From assembly GCF_014644295.1 (NCBI RefSeq), contig NZ_BMKK01000002.1, positions 310,001-374,000 on the forward strand: 64,000 bases of DNA, written 5' to 3'. Below the pieces are notes generated by a model. The model was given only the letters and a program-made list of their open reading frames with translations. It was not told where the DNA came from and did no database searches. Below, piece after piece: positions 3,141 to 58,473 of the stretch. Source of the stretch: Emticicia aquatilis (lineage in GTDB: Bacteria; Bacteroidota; Bacteroidia; Cytophagales; Spirosomataceae). Each line of letters begins with the position of its first letter. The first letter of the stretch is position 1. The position numbers and the translations under genes are program-made.

Positions 3141-5702
3141 TTAATTATCATTTTCAGTATTTAGCCCCCTTCGGGGGTTGGGGGCTATTAAAACTCCCGA
3201 ATATTTACCCGTAGCTTTCTGTGATTGATATACGACTTGTCCATTTACCCAAACTTTTTCAATGCCCGTTGAAAGGGCTTTTCCATCTTGAATATTGGCA
3301 TTGTCAATAACAGTCTCAGGGTTGAAAAGTACCAAGTCAGCATAATTCCCGTTGGTAATTATGCCTCTATCGTTTATACCTAAATTTTCAGCCGATAAAC
3401 CTGTCATTTTATAAATGGCAGTTTCGAGTTGCATGAGTTTTTGTTCACGCACATATCTGCCCAGAATTTTTGTAAAAGTGCCATGTCCCCGTGGATGGCC
3501 ACTTGATGCACCATCTGAGCAAATATTGGTGTGCGACCAAAGTAGGAAATTGGCAACATCGGCCTCATCCATTGATTTTCCCATAATTGCCTCAATTCCC
3601 TCATTAAAATCAGGGTTTTTCTCCTCAAATTCGGCGGCAATGGCTATTAAATTCATCAGGGTTTGTGATGGTTTTTCGTTACGTTCTTTAGCAATTGCCG
3701 AAATTGTTTTTCCTGCATAAGATTTATTTGGGGCAAAACGCACCAAAACTGACCTTTCTGGGTCAAATAATTGATTGACAGCAAATTCAGCACTGGCAGG
3801 ATTGGTGTAATCTCGGTTTGGGAAAAGCACACGAAGGGTTGAATTCCAAAAATCATAAGGATAGCAATCAGCTGTGATATTGATTCCTTCTGCACGAGCC
3901 TTTTGTAACCTTGCCAACAACTGAGGAGACTTGCCCCATTGGTCTTTTTTTGCAATTTTTATGTGCGAAATCTGTACAGGAATTTTGGTTTCTCTGCCAA
4001 TTTCTATGATTTCATCAATGGCATCATCCAAATTTATGTCTTCACTGCGAATATGACTCATGTAGCGACCACCGTTTTCGGCCACTATTTGAGCAAGTTG
4101 CAAAACTTCATCTCGGTTTGAGAAGAAAGCAGATTCATATTCCAAACCCGTAGCCAGACCCAAAGAACCTTTTTCTAATTCTTTTTTTAGTAAAACCTTC
4201 ATTTTGTCTACTTCCGAAGGCTTGGCAGTTCGATACAGACTTTTGGCTCCCATTACTTCACTCCGTAGTGTCGAATGTCCTGTATAGGTGGCAATATTGA
4301 CTGCAACTGGGCGTTTTTTGAAGAAATTTTTCAATGTATCCATCGGGTAGCTACCGCCATCTTGCCCAATTACAATAGTCGTAATTCCTTGACTAACAGC
4401 AGGTATTGCTTCGGGAACTTTATTGAGTCCCCCAAAATGGTGGCTATGGGTATCAATAAATCCAGGTGATAAAACCAATCCTTGTCCATCGGTACTTTCT
4501 TCATTCGGGAAAGTTATTAGATTACCAATTTCCCAAATTCTATCATCTTTCAATCGCACATCTGCTTTGCGGGCTACTGAGCCAGTACCATCAATGAGCT
4601 TAATATTTTTAATGAGTTGAGTAGTAGGGATTTTAGGTTTTTTGCCTGATAGAATAGCATTAACTAAATCTATTGCTATATCGTTTGTACCATTACTGAG
4701 AATGATAACTGTTGTTTTTTTACTCAGATTTCGTTCAATATAATTTTCAAAACCAACCCAACTGCCAGTATGACTGAGTGTTTCATCATCATCGCTGGTT
4801 TCCCAAGCAAAACCATAATTGTAAGTTTCTCCATTTTTCAATTTTACAGGCGTAAATGCCTCTTGTAGGGTTGCTTTACTTACTAATTTATTCGTATATA
4901 GAGCTTGTTCCCAAGTCAATAAATCTTCAACCGAAGAATAAATATTTCCATCGCCTACAACACCATCAAATCTCATAAGGTCATTCAAAGAGTTTTGTCC
5001 ATTTTGACGCTCGAACCCATAAACCCGCTGAGTTTTTAGGCTCAACGGGCTTTTCATGTTTAGATAATAAACAAAGGTGTTTGTTAGAAGAAGTGGTTGG
5101 GTAATATATTTATCGAAAAATGTCTCAACTTTCATTTTTGAGGCTTTTTCAATGATTGATGCCAACAAAACATAGCCCGTATTAGAATATTGCCATTCAC
5201 TACCCGACTCAAACTCAAGTTCTGGGCGAAGGTCTACCAGTAGACTAAGAACCTTTTCATTATTGAGGGTATCGAGTGTATTAGTGAATTTGGTTGCTAA
5301 ATCGAAATACTCGGGCAGGCCTGAGGTGTGCGTCAATAATTGACGAATCGAGATTTTATCGTAGGGGAAATTCGGTAAATGTTTTTTTACTTTATCATCA
5401 AATTGTAGTTTGCCTTGTTCTTTCAAAATCATTGTCATCATAGCCACAAATTGCTTAGAAACCGATGCTAAATTAAATGATGAATTAGTAGCAAGGGCTT
5501 CTTGTGTTTGAATACTCGCAATTCCAAAAGCTTTTTTGTAGAGAGGTTTTCCTTCTTTGGCAATCAAGACAACGCCATTGAACATAGCTTGTTCATGTAG
5601 TTTCGTAAGTGCAGAATTGACACTTTCAATTTGTTGAGGAGTATATTGAGAATAGCTCAGATGCGTACAAAAAAACAAGAATAAAAGTATGAAATTTCGC
5701 AT
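3141..5702 (-). CDS. Fusion: serine beta-lactamase-like hydrolase + N-acyl-D-amino-acid deacylase
   Basis: 853 residues in two enzymes. A signal peptide (1-18, ending SYSQ) is followed by a beta-lactamase/D-aminopeptidase-like domain (about 20-350) with SxxK at S80-K83 (SVSK), YxN at Y172-N174 (YSN) and HTG at 311-313. From about 365 an amidohydrolase domain of the D-aminoacylase type follows: PGFIDTHSHH (metal HxH, 419-421), SHIRSE (H550), ISHIK (H580), ADCYPY (611-616), and NICSDGASSGHPRGHGTF (catalytic-type D730). Usually these are separate proteins of about 350-400 and 480-530 residues. The pair suggests periplasmic release and deacylation of D-amino-acid-containing peptides, feeding the DUF1611/epimerase genes 12 bases downstream. 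The C-terminal tail (APNPRRGLN) is encoded by a G/C-rich repeat (3163-3186). Confidence 0.92.
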   Translation of the reverse strand: MRNFILLFLFFCTHLSYSQYTPQQIESVNSALTKLHEQAMFNGVVLIAKEGKPLYKKAFGIASIQTQEALATNSSFNLASVSKQFVAMMTMILKEQGKLQFDDKVKKHLPNFPYDKISIRQLLTHTSGLPEYFDLATKFTNTLDTLNNEKVLSLLVDLRPELEFESGSEWQYSNTGYVLLASIIEKASKMKVETFFDKYITQPLLLTNTFVYYLNMKSPLSLKTQRVYGFERQNGQNSLNDLMRFDGVVGDGNIYSSVEDLLTWEQALYTNKLVSKATLQEAFTPVKLKNGETYNYGFAWETSDDDETLSHTGSWVGFENYIERNLSKKTTVIILSNGTNDIAIDLVNAILSGKKPKIPTTQLIKNIKLIDGTGSVARKADVRLKDDRIWEIGNLITFPNEESTDGQGLVLSPGFIDTHSHHFGGLNKVPEAIPAVSQGITTIVIGQDGGSYPMDTLKNFFKKRPVAVNIATYTGHSTLRSEVMGAKSLYRTAKPSEVDKMKVLLKKELEKGSLGLATGLEYESAFFSNRDEVLQLAQIVAENGGRYMSHIRSEDINLDDAIDEIIEIGRETKIPVQISHIKIAKKDQWGKSPQLLARLQKARAEGINITADCYPYDFWNSTLRVLFPNRDYTNPASAEFAVNQLFDPERSVLVRFAPNKSYAGKTISAIAKERNEKPSQTLMNLIAIAAEFEEKNPDFNEGIEAIMGKSMDEADVANFLLWSHTNICSDGASSGHPRGHGTFTKILGRYVREQKLMQLETAIYKMTGLSAENLGINDRGIITNGNYADLVLFNPETVIDNANIQDGKALSTGIEKVWVNGQVVYQSQKATGKYSGVLIAPNPRRGLNTENDN
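3163..3186. repeat. G/C-rich palindromic repeat inside the deacylase C-terminus
   Basis: AGCCCCC-TTC-GGGGGTTGGGGGCT. It shares the plan CCCC-T-N3-GGGGTT-N-GGGG with copies at 3070-3091 (opposite strand), 21061-21083 and 22631-22653. In this AT-rich window such C/G runs stand out. Confidence 0.75.
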
Positions 5703-53818: not shown

Positions 53819-54052
53819 AAATATCCTAAGTAGAGGATTAAAAATAGATGACATTATTGTTTTGTGTAAAACATAAATAGCGAATGCTTTGTACTACTGT
53901 GGACTGTCGACCATTGACTACTTTACTAATGAGATAGATATAATTGACAAATATTTTTGACTGAGTATTCAATTAAATTTGTGTTGCCATATATAATTTA
54001 CATACTCATAAATGCCTTATAATTAGACTTTTAAATCCAATTGTTATATAAA

Positions 54053-55198
54053 ATGAACCAATCGTTTATCCTAAATCAATTAGCCGAAGACCGAGAAAAT
54101 TATTTTCATGCTGTTGCTCCGCCAATTATTCAAACCAGCAATTTTGCTTATCCTACCGTTGACGAGTTTAAGTTTGCCATTGAAAATGAAAAAGATGAAC
54201 ATATTTATACTCGCGGGAATAACCCAACCGTGAAAATGTTGTGTCAGAAAATGGCAGCCCTCGAAGGAAGTGAAGATTGCTTGATGGTAGGAAGTGGGGC
54301 TGCAGCTATAAGTAATGCTGTAATTTCGCAGGTAAATGCTGGCGAACATATTGTAAGTGTAAAGAATCCGTACACTTGGGCCAATCATTTGATGACAAAG
54401 ATTTTACCAAGATTTAATGTACAAGCTACATTTGTAGATGGCACTGATGTTGAGAATTTTATAAAAGCCTGCAAGCCAGAGACAAAACTAATTTATTTGG
54501 AGTCGCCTAATTCTTGGACTTTTGAATTACAAGATTTGGGGCAAATTGCGGCATTCGCCAAAAGTAGAGGTATAACAACTGTTATTGATAATAGTTATTG
54601 CACCGCATTATGCCAACGACCAATAGATTTTGGTATTGATTTAGTGATTTATTCGGCGACAAAATACTATAATGGGCATAGCGATGTAGTAGCTGGTGCA
54701 ATTTGTGGCTCGAAGGAGAAAATTACACAAATATTCCACAATGAATTTATGACTTTTGGTAATATTTTGGCTCCGCAAAATGCTTGGTTAATGTTACGTA
54801 GTTTACGCACATTGCCGATTAGACTAAAACAATCGTCTGAAACAACCCTAAAAGTATTAGATTATTTGAGGAATTCTGATAAAATTGAGCGTATTTGGTA
54901 TCCATTTAGTGAGGAAAACCCACAAATAGAACTTGCCAAACGACAAATGAAAATGCCAATGGGAATGTTTACTATTGCATTAAAGAATAGAAATATATCT
55001 ACAATCAAGAAATTTTGTGAATCATTACAAAATTTTCTCATTGCGGTTTCTTGGGGAGGACACGAGTCTCTAATAATGCCTAAATGTGCATTTGTAGAAG
55101 CGAATGACCCACAAGTAAGTATGCTCCGATTTTACATCGGATTAGAAGAAGCCAGCACGATTTTAGAAGATTTAGACAAAAACTTAGCTATCTTATAG
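54053..55198 (+). CDS. Cys/Met-metabolism PLP-dependent enzyme (transsulfuration family)
   Basis: 381 residues from the ATG at 54053; the TTG at 54041 is less likely. Family features: SNFAYPTVDEF, YTRGNNPTVKMLCQKMAALEG (the Y-R of the neighbouring subunit), SGAAAISNAV, ID(N)SYCT for PLP and the Schiff-base lysine K204 in YSATKYYNGHSD. The family includes cystathionine gamma-synthase and lyase, methionine gamma-lyase and O-acetylhomoserine sulfhydrylase. The usual cystathionine enzyme reads DNT in the place of DNS, so the substrate may differ. The preceding gene is a permease, not obviously linked. Confidence 0.9.
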   Translation: MNQSFILNQLAEDRENYFHAVAPPIIQTSNFAYPTVDEFKFAIENEKDEHIYTRGNNPTVKMLCQKMAALEGSEDCLMVGSGAAAISNAVISQVNAGEHIVSVKNPYTWANHLMTKILPRFNVQATFVDGTDVENFIKACKPETKLIYLESPNSWTFELQDLGQIAAFAKSRGITTVIDNSYCTALCQRPIDFGIDLVIYSATKYYNGHSDVVAGAICGSKEKITQIFHNEFMTFGNILAPQNAWLMLRSLRTLPIRLKQSSETTLKVLDYLRNSDKIERIWYPFSEENPQIELAKRQMKMPMGMFTIALKNRNISTIKKFCESLQNFLIAVSWGGHESLIMPKCAFVEANDPQVSMLRFYIGLEEASTILEDLDKNLAIL

Positions 55199-55293: not shown

Positions 55294-55434
55294 TTAATAC
55301 CATGAATAAACATTACGAGGACGTGACTGTAAGCTTACCAAATAACCTTTTGGAGCATACAACTCTTTTTCTTCGTTCATGCGGGTCATTAAAAGACCAC
55401 CGATAGCAAGTGAGGCAATTGTGAGTAATAACAT
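55294..55434 (-). CDS. Micro-protein A, 46 residues, paralogue of the one at 55636
   Basis: Short frame not listed in standard gene calls. It begins MLLLTIASLAIGGLLMTRM (one hydrophobic segment), then a charged stretch (NEEKEL) and YAPKGYLVSLQSRPRNVYSWY. It aligns end to end with the gene at 55636-55770: in the 20-codon block from the Glu-Leu of EELYAPKG to NVY, eight codon differences are synonymous and one changes the residue (S/N). I know no family for it. Probably a small single-pass or membrane-anchored peptide with a conserved cytoplasmic or extracellular tail. Confidence 0.8.
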   Translation of the reverse strand: MLLLTIASLAIGGLLMTRMNEEKELYAPKGYLVSLQSRPRNVYSWY

Positions 55435-55635
55435 AGTTTTGCACGTTTTATGGTGTAATATTTGTTATTTACTTTATTAAAAACAATGCCAATTAAAAAT
55501 CAAGTGTTGATTGTTAGATTTTTTTATCGTAAAACCCGAAAAAATACGCTTGATGATTAGAAAAATAATTTAAAATATTTTTTAAAAGACAAGATTTTAA
55601 TGGAATCTTTCTATAAAAACTATTTAAAGTACATT

Positions 55636-55770
55636 CTAATAGTAGTAAACATTACGAGGGCGTGACTGTAAATTTACTAAGTAGCCTTTTGGAGCGTAAA
55701 GTTCTTCAGTTTCACGAACTTTAGTCATCATGATTCCGCCGATTGCGAGTGCTAATGCTGCTAATAACAT
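55636..55770 (-). CDS. Micro-protein B, 44 residues, paralogue of the one at 55294
   Basis: MLLAALALAIGGIMMTKVRE, then TEELYAPKGYLVNLQSRPRN and VYYY. Hydrophobic N-terminus of about 16 residues, charged linker and strongly conserved tail ELYAPKGYLV-x-LQSRPRNVY. A clear promoter (TTG-N20-TACTTTTG, 55813-55843) lies 43 bases upstream of the ATG, showing it is transcribed alone or as a unit with the gene 201 bases further on. Function unknown. Confidence 0.82.
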   Translation of the reverse strand: MLLAALALAIGGIMMTKVRETEELYAPKGYLVNLQSRPRNVYYY

Positions 55771-55812: not shown

Positions 55813-55843
55813 CAAAAGTAGGTATTAAATATTTATTTGTCAA
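55813..55843 (-). promoter_or_regulatory. Promoter of micro-gene B
   Basis: On the minus strand TTGAC (from 55843), 20 bases after the TTG, then TACTTTTG (55820-55813); identical spacing and box to the tRNA-Ser promoter in this window. Confidence 0.8.
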
Positions 55844-55972
55844 GTATTTTCAGAAAATTTTGAAAATTATATAACTTTTGAATACATAATTTTATTGAAC
55901 GGTACTATCGTATGTGATTCGGGAGAAAAACGTCTTGTTTTTAAGTGATTAACTTTTGATATTTTAACTTGT

Positions 55973-56020: not shown

Positions 56021-56686
56021 GTGAAACTTGTATTAGTACCCACGCCAATTGGCAATTTAGAGGATATAACCTTACGAGCAATCAATGTTTTAAAATCAGC
56101 TGATTTGATTTTAGCAGAAGATACTCGTAATACGGGATTCTTATTGAAACACCTCGAAATCTCGAAACCACTTCAGAGTCATCATGCCTTTAATGAGCAT
56201 CAAACACTCAATAAAGTGATTGATAGAATAAAAAAAGGTGATAAAATCGTATTAGTGTCTGATGCAGGTACACCAGCTATTTCTGACCCTGGTTTTTTAT
56301 TAGTTCGTGAGTGTTTACGTAATGAGATTGAAGTTGAGTGCTTACCGGGCCCGACGGCTTTTGTTCCTGCCTTAGTAAATTCGGGTTTACCTTGTGATAG
56401 ATTTACATTTGAAGGGTTTTTACCAGTAAAAAAAGGACGTCAAACTCGTATGAAAGCGTTGGCTGAAGAAGAAAGAACTATGATTTTCTATGAATCTCCT
56501 TTTAGATTGGTAAAAACATTGGAACAATTTACTGAATATTTTGGTCCAGAACGTCAAGCTTGTGTATCGAGAGAAATCACAAAAATGTTTGAAGAAAATG
56601 TGCGTGGTACATTGACCGAAGTCATTGCAAGCTTTGCCAATCGTACTGTGAAAGGAGAAATTGTCATAGTTGTAGCGGGAAAATAG
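56021..56686 (+). CDS. rsmI: 16S rRNA 2'-O-methyltransferase RsmI
   Basis: 221 residues from GTG 56021 (VKLVLVPTPIGNLEDITLRA, the usual family start). It 2'-O-methylates C1402 in the ribosomal decoding site with SAM. Key motifs: LAEDTRNTGFLL, VSDAGTPAISDPGFLLV, CLPGPTAFVPALVNSGLP, and YESPFRLVKTLEQF. The tetrapyrrole-methylase-type fold is complete. A TTG at 55997 would give eight extra residues but overlaps the promoter box. Confidence 0.95.
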   Translation: MKLVLVPTPIGNLEDITLRAINVLKSADLILAEDTRNTGFLLKHLEISKPLQSHHAFNEHQTLNKVIDRIKKGDKIVLVSDAGTPAISDPGFLLVRECLRNEIEVECLPGPTAFVPALVNSGLPCDRFTFEGFLPVKKGRQTRMKALAEEERTMIFYESPFRLVKTLEQFTEYFGPERQACVSREITKMFEENVRGTLTEVIASFANRTVKGEIVIVVAGK

Positions 56687-56719: not shown

Positions 56720-57643
56720 ATGTTTGAAACTATCAAAAATCTTACTTTAGAGCAGTTAGTAATCATTACAACTACGCCACTTTATACAATTTTAATTGTT
56801 GGCGAGATTCTTTTGAGCAATTATCAGCATCGCCATTATTATACATTTAAAGATACCATTACGAACCTTTATCTAATGATTTTGAATGGTGGGCTGGATT
56901 TGATTTCAAGGGGTGTCACTTGGGGGATTTTAGCATGGGTCTATCAATTTCATTTTGCTGAGATTCAAAACCCAATTTTATATTGGTTCTTGCTTTTTGT
57001 AGCCGAAGATTTTGTGTATTACCTGCTTCACGTAGTTGACCATTACACCCGTTTTTTCTGGGCTTCACACGTTACACATCATTCGTCAGAGCAATTCAAT
57101 TTAACCGTAGGTTTTAGGTCTTCTGTGTTCCAGCCGCTTTATCGTTTTATTTATTTTATTCCGCTTTCATTGCTTGGTTTCAAGGTTGTAGATATGGCAG
57201 TGATGTATTCGATTACTCAAATTTATGGAATTTTAGTTCATACAAGTTATGTTCCAAAATTTCGTAAAATGCCCTATAAGCTCTTAGAATACGTATTTGT
57301 GACTCCTTCTCAGCACCGAGTTCATCACGCCTCTAATACCGAGTATTTAGACAAGAATATGGGTATGTGTTTATCAATTTGGGATAGAATGTTTGGTACT
57401 TTTCAAGAAGAAATTGATGATTTACCAATCAAGTATGGTCTGACATATCCACTCGAAAATCGCGGGCCAGCCAATATTGTTTTTCATGCTTGGATAGATT
57501 TGTGGAATGACCTCAAAAAGCCTTCAAGTTTTATTATAAAAATCAAATTGCTTTTAATGCCACCAGGCTGGTCGCCTGATGGTAGTACCAAAACAAGTAA
57601 AGAATTGCGAGAGGAATTGGTTAGAGAACGAGTAGAGGCTTAA
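56720..57643 (+). CDS. Sterol desaturase/fatty acid hydroxylase superfamily protein
   Basis: 307 residues, membrane protein with about four helices in the first half and the histidine boxes of di-iron hydroxylases: HVVDH (HxxxH), HVTHH (HxxHH) and HRVHH (HxxHH). These coordinate iron for hydroxylation or desaturation of lipids, carotenoids or hopanoid-like molecules. The substrate is unknown; a carotenoid hydroxylase (CrtZ-like) role is possible since a lycopene cyclase lies in the window, but the length points to the larger sterol-desaturase type. Its stop overlaps that of the convergent gene by 4 bases. Confidence 0.9.
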   Translation: MFETIKNLTLEQLVIITTTPLYTILIVGEILLSNYQHRHYYTFKDTITNLYLMILNGGLDLISRGVTWGILAWVYQFHFAEIQNPILYWFLLFVAEDFVYYLLHVVDHYTRFFWASHVTHHSSEQFNLTVGFRSSVFQPLYRFIYFIPLSLLGFKVVDMAVMYSITQIYGILVHTSYVPKFRKMPYKLLEYVFVTPSQHRVHHASNTEYLDKNMGMCLSIWDRMFGTFQEEIDDLPIKYGLTYPLENRGPANIVFHAWIDLWNDLKKPSSFIIKIKLLLMPPGWSPDGSTKTSKELREELVRERVEA

Positions 57644-58407
57644 TCGCCACCACCACATCCGCCACAACCTGAGCAACCACTGTCTCCACCACAACCACTA
57701 TCACCTCCGTCTGAATCATACGAGGCACCACAAGAAGAACAACCACTACTACTTGAGTCATTACTTGTATTTGATTGATTTTGAGATGCTTTGACAAGTA
57801 GATACATGATGAATGCGAAAGCTCCCCAAAAAAGTATAGTTATTAGGGCAGTTTTTGTAGGATTGGCCTGTAAGATAATAAAGGGGATAGTAGAAAATAG
57901 TAAGGTTTTGGAGAGTATTTCAACGTTTGGCTTCGGGATGACCCAGTTTCTATGAAGGTTTACACGTTGAAATTTAATTTCTGAAAAACGTTTTTGTGAA
58001 TGATGCCAAATATCGTCGGGTGGGAAAATACCAAATTTTTCTTTGTAGAGGCTCTCGGATGTCTCATAAAAGTTTTTAAACTTTTCTCTTTCGTTATCTC
58101 CTCCTTTGGTTGGATTGTGGTGAATTTGCTGACCGAGCGTATTCTGACAAAAATCTATCCAGTAAGACTTGGTGAAGGTGAGATGCAAATGCCAAACTTG
58201 GTCAACGGGGTCGGATGGAGTCACGCCTGAATCGGAAATGCAGCAGAGGAAAATAAACCTTTTGTACTCGTCAATTACTCTTTGGGTGTAAATTTTGCTC
58301 CACCCATTTTCTCTTGCGAGTCGTTCGGAGAATTTGAAACTAGCGGAATCATCGTCTAATTCAAAGGCTTGAATTTTCTCAAATAATTCCATTTCTTTGT
58401 CTGTCAT
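57640..58407 (-). CDS. Glycine-rich domain protein (GRDP/DUF1399-like) with Cys-Gly-Ser tail
   Basis: 255 residues from ATG 58407 (MTDKEMELFEKIQAFEL); a TTG at 58461 would add 18 unrelated residues. Core: YKRFIFLCCISDSGVTPSDPVDQVWHLHLTFTKSYWIDFC, the DxVWHxHL motif of GRDP proteins, and two membrane helices (about 170-215). The last 35 residues are almost only Ser, Gly, Cys and Asp (SGCSSCGAS, GGDSGCGGDSGCSGCGGCGG), with about eight cysteines, reminiscent of metal-binding or insoluble tails. Related Bacteroidota proteins share the GGG-C tail. Function unknown. Confidence 0.8.
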   Translation of the reverse strand: MTDKEMELFEKIQAFELDDDSASFKFSERLARENGWSKIYTQRVIDEYKRFIFLCCISDSGVTPSDPVDQVWHLHLTFTKSYWIDFCQNTLGQQIHHNPTKGGDNEREKFKNFYETSESLYKEKFGIFPPDDIWHHSQKRFSEIKFQRVNLHRNWVIPKPNVEILSKTLLFSTIPFIILQANPTKTALITILFWGAFAFIMYLLVKASQNQSNTSNDSSSSGCSSCGASYDSDGGDSGCGGDSGCSGCGGCGGGD

Positions 58408-58473
58408 AGGCTGTGTTTTTTGATTTCTATGAAAATTTACAAAGTTTTTCTGTAAACTCAAACGATTAAGCCG

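What the first reader, a model, noticed from the sequence alone, without database searches (positions are those of the whole stretch)
55294..55770. Two unannotated paralogous micro-genes with strong purifying selection
Frames of 46 and 44 codons share a hydrophobic N-terminus and the tail ELYAPKGYLV-x-LQSRPRNVY. In a 20-codon block eight codons differ synonymously and only one by replacement. One has a textbook promoter. They fill the otherwise empty 800 bases between two genes and are too short for ordinary gene callers.
Basis: partly seen in the sequence, partly recalled or inferred. Interest (0 to 1): 0.75.

Follow-up and report, generated by a model that had tools for sequence, protein, structure and literature searches.

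The report
Paired small membrane-protein genes in Emticicia
Two tiny neighbouring bacterial genes, each for a protein of about 45 amino acids that probably sits in the cell membrane, are real and well conserved within one group of related bacteria, but what they do is not yet known.

Summary
Two minus-strand genes, A (55294-55434, 46 aa) and B (55636-55770, 44 aa), lie in an 822-base gap beside rsmI. The pair is in 10 of 11 genomes of the genus (Emticicia); the eleventh shows no rsmI either. They are coding: pN/pS 0.144 and 0.151 over 10 genomes, rsmI 0.100. Profiles find 43-46 aa relatives in 29 of 222 genomes of the family, five of them (genus g54) less certain. In the 24 others the gene is divergent to rsmI. 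No convincing relative turned up in the scanned genomes outside the family, nor in phages or plasmids. An rsmI tree fits one origin (17 carriers of 44 rows, support 68/82). All 16 representatives have an uncharged run of 16-20 aa from Met1, then a net basic tail, consensus APKxYLxxLRxRPRS. Best reading: an undescribed, lineage-restricted family of single-pass inner-membrane proteins, N-out/C-in, whose tail binds an unidentified partner. Location and partner are not shown. Solid, but one of many such families.

The parts
55294..55434 (-). micro-gene A, 46 aa, MLLLTIASLAIGGLLMTRMNEEKELYAPKGYLVSLQSRPRNVYSWY
   Evidence: frame kept in the 10 Emticicia genomes that hold the locus; pN/pS 0.144
55636..55770 (-). 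micro-gene B, 44 aa, MLLAALALAIGGIMMTKVRETEELYAPKGYLVNLQSRPRNVYYY
   Evidence: frame kept in the same 10 genomes; pN/pS 0.151
55813..55820 (-). -7 promoter element of B, TACTTTTG (TAnnTTTG)
   Evidence: TAnnTTTG with TTG-N20 before it in 10 of 10 genomes; consensus recalled
55838..55866 (-). conserved block TTTTCAAAATTTTCTGAAAATACTTGACA with the -33 TTGAC and an inverted repeat TTTTCA-N8-TGAAAA (55847-55866)
   Evidence: 27 of its last 28 bases identical in 10 of 10 genomes; only site in the own genome at up to 3 mismatches; the front half is also before the first copy of G035
55441..55448 (-). conserved leader AAACGTGC just before the A start
   Evidence: in 9 of 10 genomes (AAACGTAA in G009); TACGTGC before both copies of G035
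56021..56686 (+). rsmI-like gene (tetrapyrrole methylase fold), divergent neighbour
   Evidence: Pfam PF00590 E 6.9e-32; the name RsmI is recalled, from the VPTPIGNL start; divergent neighbour in 24 of 24 carriers outside g54
54041..55198 (+). Cys/Met metabolism PLP-dependent enzyme, convergent neighbour
   Evidence: Pfam PF01053 E 3.5e-99; coordinates (true start not settled)

Best explanation
A and B encode two paralogous members of an undescribed, lineage-restricted family of small single-pass inner-membrane proteins. Shown: they are protein-coding, conserved, constrained in length and share one tail motif; their spread fits vertical descent from one origin. Predicted: the uncharged hydrophobic run of 16-20 residues from Met1 spans the membrane with the N-terminus outside, and the basic tail of 23-29 residues (end of the helix, APK turn, short helix, RPR-aromatic end) lies in the cytoplasm. 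Inferred: B is made from its own promoter, the proteins are not secreted, and tail and membrane helix together bind and tune a larger membrane or membrane-near partner, in the manner of CydX, KdpF or AcrZ. A and B would be two versions tuned to related partners or states. The partner is unknown.
For: Coding: pN/pS 0.144 and 0.151 over 10 genomes, rsmI 0.100; variable sites by codon position 13/6/32 of 45 and 15/8/35 of 44; the true frame has the lowest pN/pS of six. Family: 29 of 222 family genomes with E below 1e-10 (many of these are rows of the profile, but 10 genomes of g20, g23 and g56 were reached with the earlier profile A2, which holds none of their sequences except one g20 row from G029, at E 6e-12 to 4e-4). 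Descent: 17 carriers are one side of one branch in 44 rows. Architecture: in 16 of 16 representatives the first charged residue is at position 17 or later and the tail is net positive, +2 to +9. Motif: K and Y invariant, P and R-P nearly so in 20 diverse members. Model: helix 2-25, turn, helix 29-35.
Against: No partner was identified. Only rsmI is kept as a neighbour, and RsmI is a soluble rRNA methylase by common knowledge. The structural model is weak: mean pLDDT 66, under 60 past residue 20, pTM 0.28. Topology rests on hydropathy and charge alone. Within Emticicia the tail of A is less constrained than its membrane half (pN/pS 0.175 against 0.059; B 0.156 against 0.138). With g54 included only P and Y stay invariant. 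188 of 222 genomes of the family show no match, so it does not serve a universal complex.
Confidence: 0.55

Rival explanations
1. Type I toxin: a small hydrophobic peptide that damages the membrane, held in check by an antisense RNA; such toxins are often in tandem copies in gene gaps.
For: Size, one hydrophobic stretch, basic tail, tandem copies in Emticicia, G035 and G240.
Against: The tail motif is kept over genera; one syntenic place in 24 of 24 carriers outside g54; spread fits one origin; no relative in the viral, plasmid and phage collections at the limits used; no Rfam match there; no consensus structure 3' of either gene, though single genomes fold hairpins after A. An antisense promoter was not searched for systematically.
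Confidence: 0.1
2. The basic RPR tail binds acidic lipids or RNA/ribosomes at the inner face of the membrane; the protein is a membrane tether linked in function to its divergent neighbour rsmI.
For: Net positive tail in 16 of 16; divergent rsmI in 24 of 24 carriers outside g54, in spite of changed genes on the other side.
Against: g54 copies and the third copy of E. aquatica lie elsewhere; 28 rsmI loci from genomes without a convincing match show no such gene; synteny may be inertia.
Confidence: 0.15
3. A secreted or processed peptide (signal, pheromone or precursor) whose hydrophobic start is a signal peptide.
For: Hydrophobic N-terminus; a short tail of about 27 residues; two variants per Emticicia genome; tail pN/pS 0.156 and 0.175, above rsmI's 0.100.
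Against: No positive residue before the hydrophobic run in 16 of 16, and positive residues soon after it, the opposite of a signal peptide; no obvious exporter or modifying enzyme in the about 1.5 kb seen on either side (names by eye).
Confidence: 0.07
4. The conserved unit is an RNA (small or antisense RNA), the frames being by-products.
For: B's promoter block and leader are the best conserved non-coding DNA.
Against: Third-codon-position variation and low pN/pS in the frame; no consensus structure 3' of either gene and only a weak one over the B frame (-4.8 kcal/mol); no Rfam match.
Confidence: 0.03

Closest known systems
Small bitopic accessory proteins of membrane complexes (CydX, KdpF, AcrZ)
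   Same: 30-50 aa, one membrane helix, short tail, easily overlooked (recalled; CydX and AcrZ also from abstract starts)
   Different: No sequence relation found (no Pfam hit for 13 members); not beside the genes of a complex; partner unknown
Type I toxins of the Ldr/Fst/TisB kind (recalled)
   Same: Size, hydrophobic stretch, tandem copies
   Different: Tail motif kept across genera, spread fits vertical descent, no mobile relatives found
TatA/TatE (recalled)
   Same: Short N-out helix, then a turn with a PK motif and a further helix
   Different: The motif lies about 8 residues further from the membrane; no Pfam match at E 0.1 for any of 13 members

Membership tests
Protein-coding gene under purifying selection | pN/pS well below 1 in one frame, third-position variation | tested here: met
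Small single-pass membrane protein | under about 50 aa with one hydrophobic stretch | tested here: met
   16 of 16 representatives
Small single-pass membrane protein | found in the membrane | not testable with these tools
   no localisation data
Accessory subunit of a membrane complex (CydX, KdpF, AcrZ-like) | encoded beside the genes of its complex | tested here: not met
   neighbours are rsmI and varying other genes; AcrZ too is not required to sit beside its partner (recalled), so this does not exclude the mode of action
Accessory subunit of a membrane complex (CydX, KdpF, AcrZ-like) | bound to a larger membrane protein | not testable with these tools
   no interaction data
CydX, KdpF or another described family | match to a curated model | tested here: not met
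   Pfam and PHROGs: none at E 0.1 for 13 members; single proteins at E up to 10 gave only matches far under the curated cut-offs
Type I toxin | antisense RNA partner and toxicity | not testable with these tools
   no expression data; antisense promoters not searched systematically
Type I toxin | copies on mobile elements or patchy spread (common, not strictly defining) | tested here: not met
   g54 and the third E. aquatica copy do show that the gene can sit elsewhere
Sec signal peptide precursor | positive n-region before the hydrophobic run | tested here: not met
   0 of 16

The most novel reading that the evidence does not exclude
A gene that entered or arose in the phhB-rsmI gap in one lineage of Spirosomataceae has become a fixed membrane protein that ties ribosomes or rRNA modification to the inner membrane through its basic RPR tail, explaining its lasting divergent pairing with rsmI.
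Probability: 0.07. Interest if true: 0.65.

Novelty: new member of a known kind. Interest (0 to 1): 0.35.

Why it matters
It is a clean, well-bounded example of a lineage-restricted small membrane protein family, with the place without the gene visible in relatives and a well conserved promoter before one copy. That makes two open questions testable in a cultured genus: how such genes arise, and what they bind.

Tried and rejected
Regulon search with B's promoter block: only its own site at up to 3 mismatches in the own genome. The core inverted repeat followed by CTTG gave its own site plus two one-mismatch sites (control pattern 0), not followed up.

Structure at the 3' ends: RNAalifold gives none after A or B. 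Hairpins in single genomes after A (for example -16.8 and -18.1 kcal/mol over 80 nt) differ in place and sequence, so a terminator is possible but not shown.

Relatives in solved structures: only chance matches, E 0.51 with profile A4 and 1.6 with B. Fold search was not run because the model is too weak.

Order and phylum scans: outside the own family there are 12 and 6 genomes with matches at E up to 0.01. By the tables these lie in long frames, hold stops or sit in frames of 37 aa or fewer, apart from one (G652, frame 62 aa, E 0.0047, 27 profile positions). Only one of them (L074) was looked at in sequence. The scans score at most 18 candidates per genome, so divergent relatives may be missed. 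The plasmid and phage searches used B alone, at E up to 1.

The look before rsmI in 28 loci listed only frames from ATG of 30 aa or more within 900 nt and was judged by eye. phhB was recognised by a motif of my own, not by Pfam, so absences may be misses.

Papers: I saw search listings only, and no title or abstract start in them names this family. One search listed 20 of 5,691 papers, so it excludes little; one search found none. PMC10903887 was searched for six terms (Bacteroid, Cytophag, Emticicia, Runella, tandem, conserved intergenic) with 0 passages; no paper was read. The promoter consensus, the positive-inside rule, TatA, KdpF and type I toxins are recalled; that CydX and AcrZ belong to the cytochrome bd oxidase and to AcrB also stands in abstract starts.

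Full report
The frames. Gene A is 55434..55294 and gene B 55770..55636, both on the minus strand, in the 822-base gap between a Cys/Met-metabolism enzyme gene (ends 55198) and an rsmI-like gene (GTG at 56021). They are 66% identical over the aligned columns. The genome search finds 2 copies. No tRNA or Rfam family lies there, and no curated protein family matches at its cut-off.

The genus. The pair is in 10 of 11 genomes of the genus, the own genome included. The other one, G005 (90% complete), shows no rsmI match either, so its locus is probably missing from the assembly. Contig lengths shared between name the genus Emticicia (for example, G007 is Emticicia aquatica); the species of the window itself was not named. 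Pooled over all pairs of the 10 genomes, pN/pS is 0.144 for A, 0.151 for B and 0.100 for rsmI of the same genomes. These are uncorrected proportions and pS is high. Split into membrane half and tail, A gives 0.059 and 0.175, B 0.138 and 0.156: within the genus the tail is not the more constrained part. Variable sites by codon position are 13/6/32 of 45 each (A) and 15/8/35 of 44 each (B). In the other five frames pN/pS is 0.25 to 4.9. In-frame stops upstream in relatives support the ATG starts.

The family. Profiles were grown in rounds: A2 (13 sequences), A3 (20) and A4 (19). With A4, 34 of 222 genomes of the taxonomic family match at E up to 0.01. Five of these (G060, G088, G162, G191, G193) have weak matches only and are dropped; G193's is a rhodanese-like protein by its look. 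The 29 kept are 10 Emticicia, 14 genomes of six other genera, and five of genus g54. Many are rows of the profile and so match by construction. The test free of that is the growth itself: A2 reached G165, G240 and eight g23 genomes, none of them in it, at E 6e-12 to 4e-4 per genome. The g54 set is the least certain. It was first reached with A2 at E 0.002 (G197, G198), then with A3 at 1.5e-5 (G198), 0.003 (G186) and 0.01 (G192). Profile against profile gives probability 96.8 over 22 columns. A search with g54 sequences alone returns, beyond g54, eight genomes at E 5e-4 to 0.01, seven of which are known carriers. In the order (390 genomes) and the phylum (395) no convincing relative lies outside the family, and none was found in viral contigs, plasmids or phages.

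Place and origin. In 24 of 24 carriers outside g54 an rsmI motif lies divergently within 1.5 kb before the gene. The gene on its other side changes between genera. Of 30 chosen genomes without a convincing match, 28 gave an rsmI locus, and none shows such a gene before rsmI. An rsmI tree of 44 rows (17 of the 24 carriers, by my choice, and 27 of 28 others; G041 was dropped because its motif was not recognised) needs one change, with support 68/82 and one change in 68% of bootstrap trees. G035 stands in an open fork apart from the other 16 carriers, and g54 is not in the tree. So one origin fits but is not proven. In 13 of 27 non-carriers phhB (by motif) lies upstream on the strand of rsmI, in 12 of them 11-174 nt away and in G025 724. 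In 4 of 13 carriers tested phhB is still there, 396-456 nt away, with the micro-gene in between on the other strand. The simplest reading is that the gene entered or arose in the phhB-rsmI gap. Against a single fixed place, g54 copies and a third copy in E. aquatica beside an mnmG-like gene (named by eye) lie elsewhere.

Promoter. B has TTG-N20-TAnnTTTG in 10 of 10 genomes, 22-44 nt before the ATG; nothing of that form lies between B and A in 10 of 10. At B's promoter lies a block with 27 of 28 bases identical in 10 of 10, holding most of an inverted repeat. It is the only such site in the genome at up to 3 mismatches. Its front half recurs before the first copy of G035, outside the genus. No TAnnTTTG lies within 150 nt of the start in 13 loci of other genera, so this promoter is not a family trait.

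Protein. In 16 of 16 representatives the first charged residue comes at position 17 or later (run of 16-20, mean hydropathy 1.7 to 3.4), and the tail of 23-29 residues has net charge +2 to +9. By the positive-inside rule (recalled) the tail is cytoplasmic. In 20 diverse members K and Y of the motif are invariant and P and R-P nearly so; with g54, P and Y remain invariant. The AlphaFold2 model of B, from 15 sequences of the window and of related-loci loci, has helix 2-25 and a weak helix 29-35, mean pLDDT 66, pTM 0.28.

Reading. Real gene family: very likely (about 0.97). Inner-membrane, C-in: likely (about 0.85). Accessory protein of an unknown partner: best single mechanism, not shown.

Noticed in passing
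window 55838-55866 (-): Inverted repeat TTTTCA-N8-TGAAAA fused to the -33 element of B, nearly unchanged in 10 genomes and single in the own genome; possible operator with no known protein.
   Followed up: partly
L049, L050, L053, L055 against L097-L123: phhB (by motif) and rsmI are near neighbours on one strand in several families of the order; the micro-gene lies between them in four carriers.
   Followed up: yes
L033 about 5372-5506 (-): A third, more distant copy in Emticicia aquatica, convergent with an mnmG-like gene.
   Followed up: partly
L062, L078, L087, L138: In genus g54 the probable relatives follow a secreted-looking protein of about 155 aa; the one tested resembles TonB_C, just under its cut-off (24.1 of 24.6 bits).
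   Followed up: partly
L149 1720-1857 and 1971-2108: Tandem copies in G035 differ at 7 of 138 nt, none changing the protein: recent duplication or gene conversion.
   Followed up: partly
window 57640-58461 (-): Frame of 273 aa whose C-terminus is rich in glycine and cysteine (GGDSGCGGDSGCSGCGGCGGGD).
   Followed up: no
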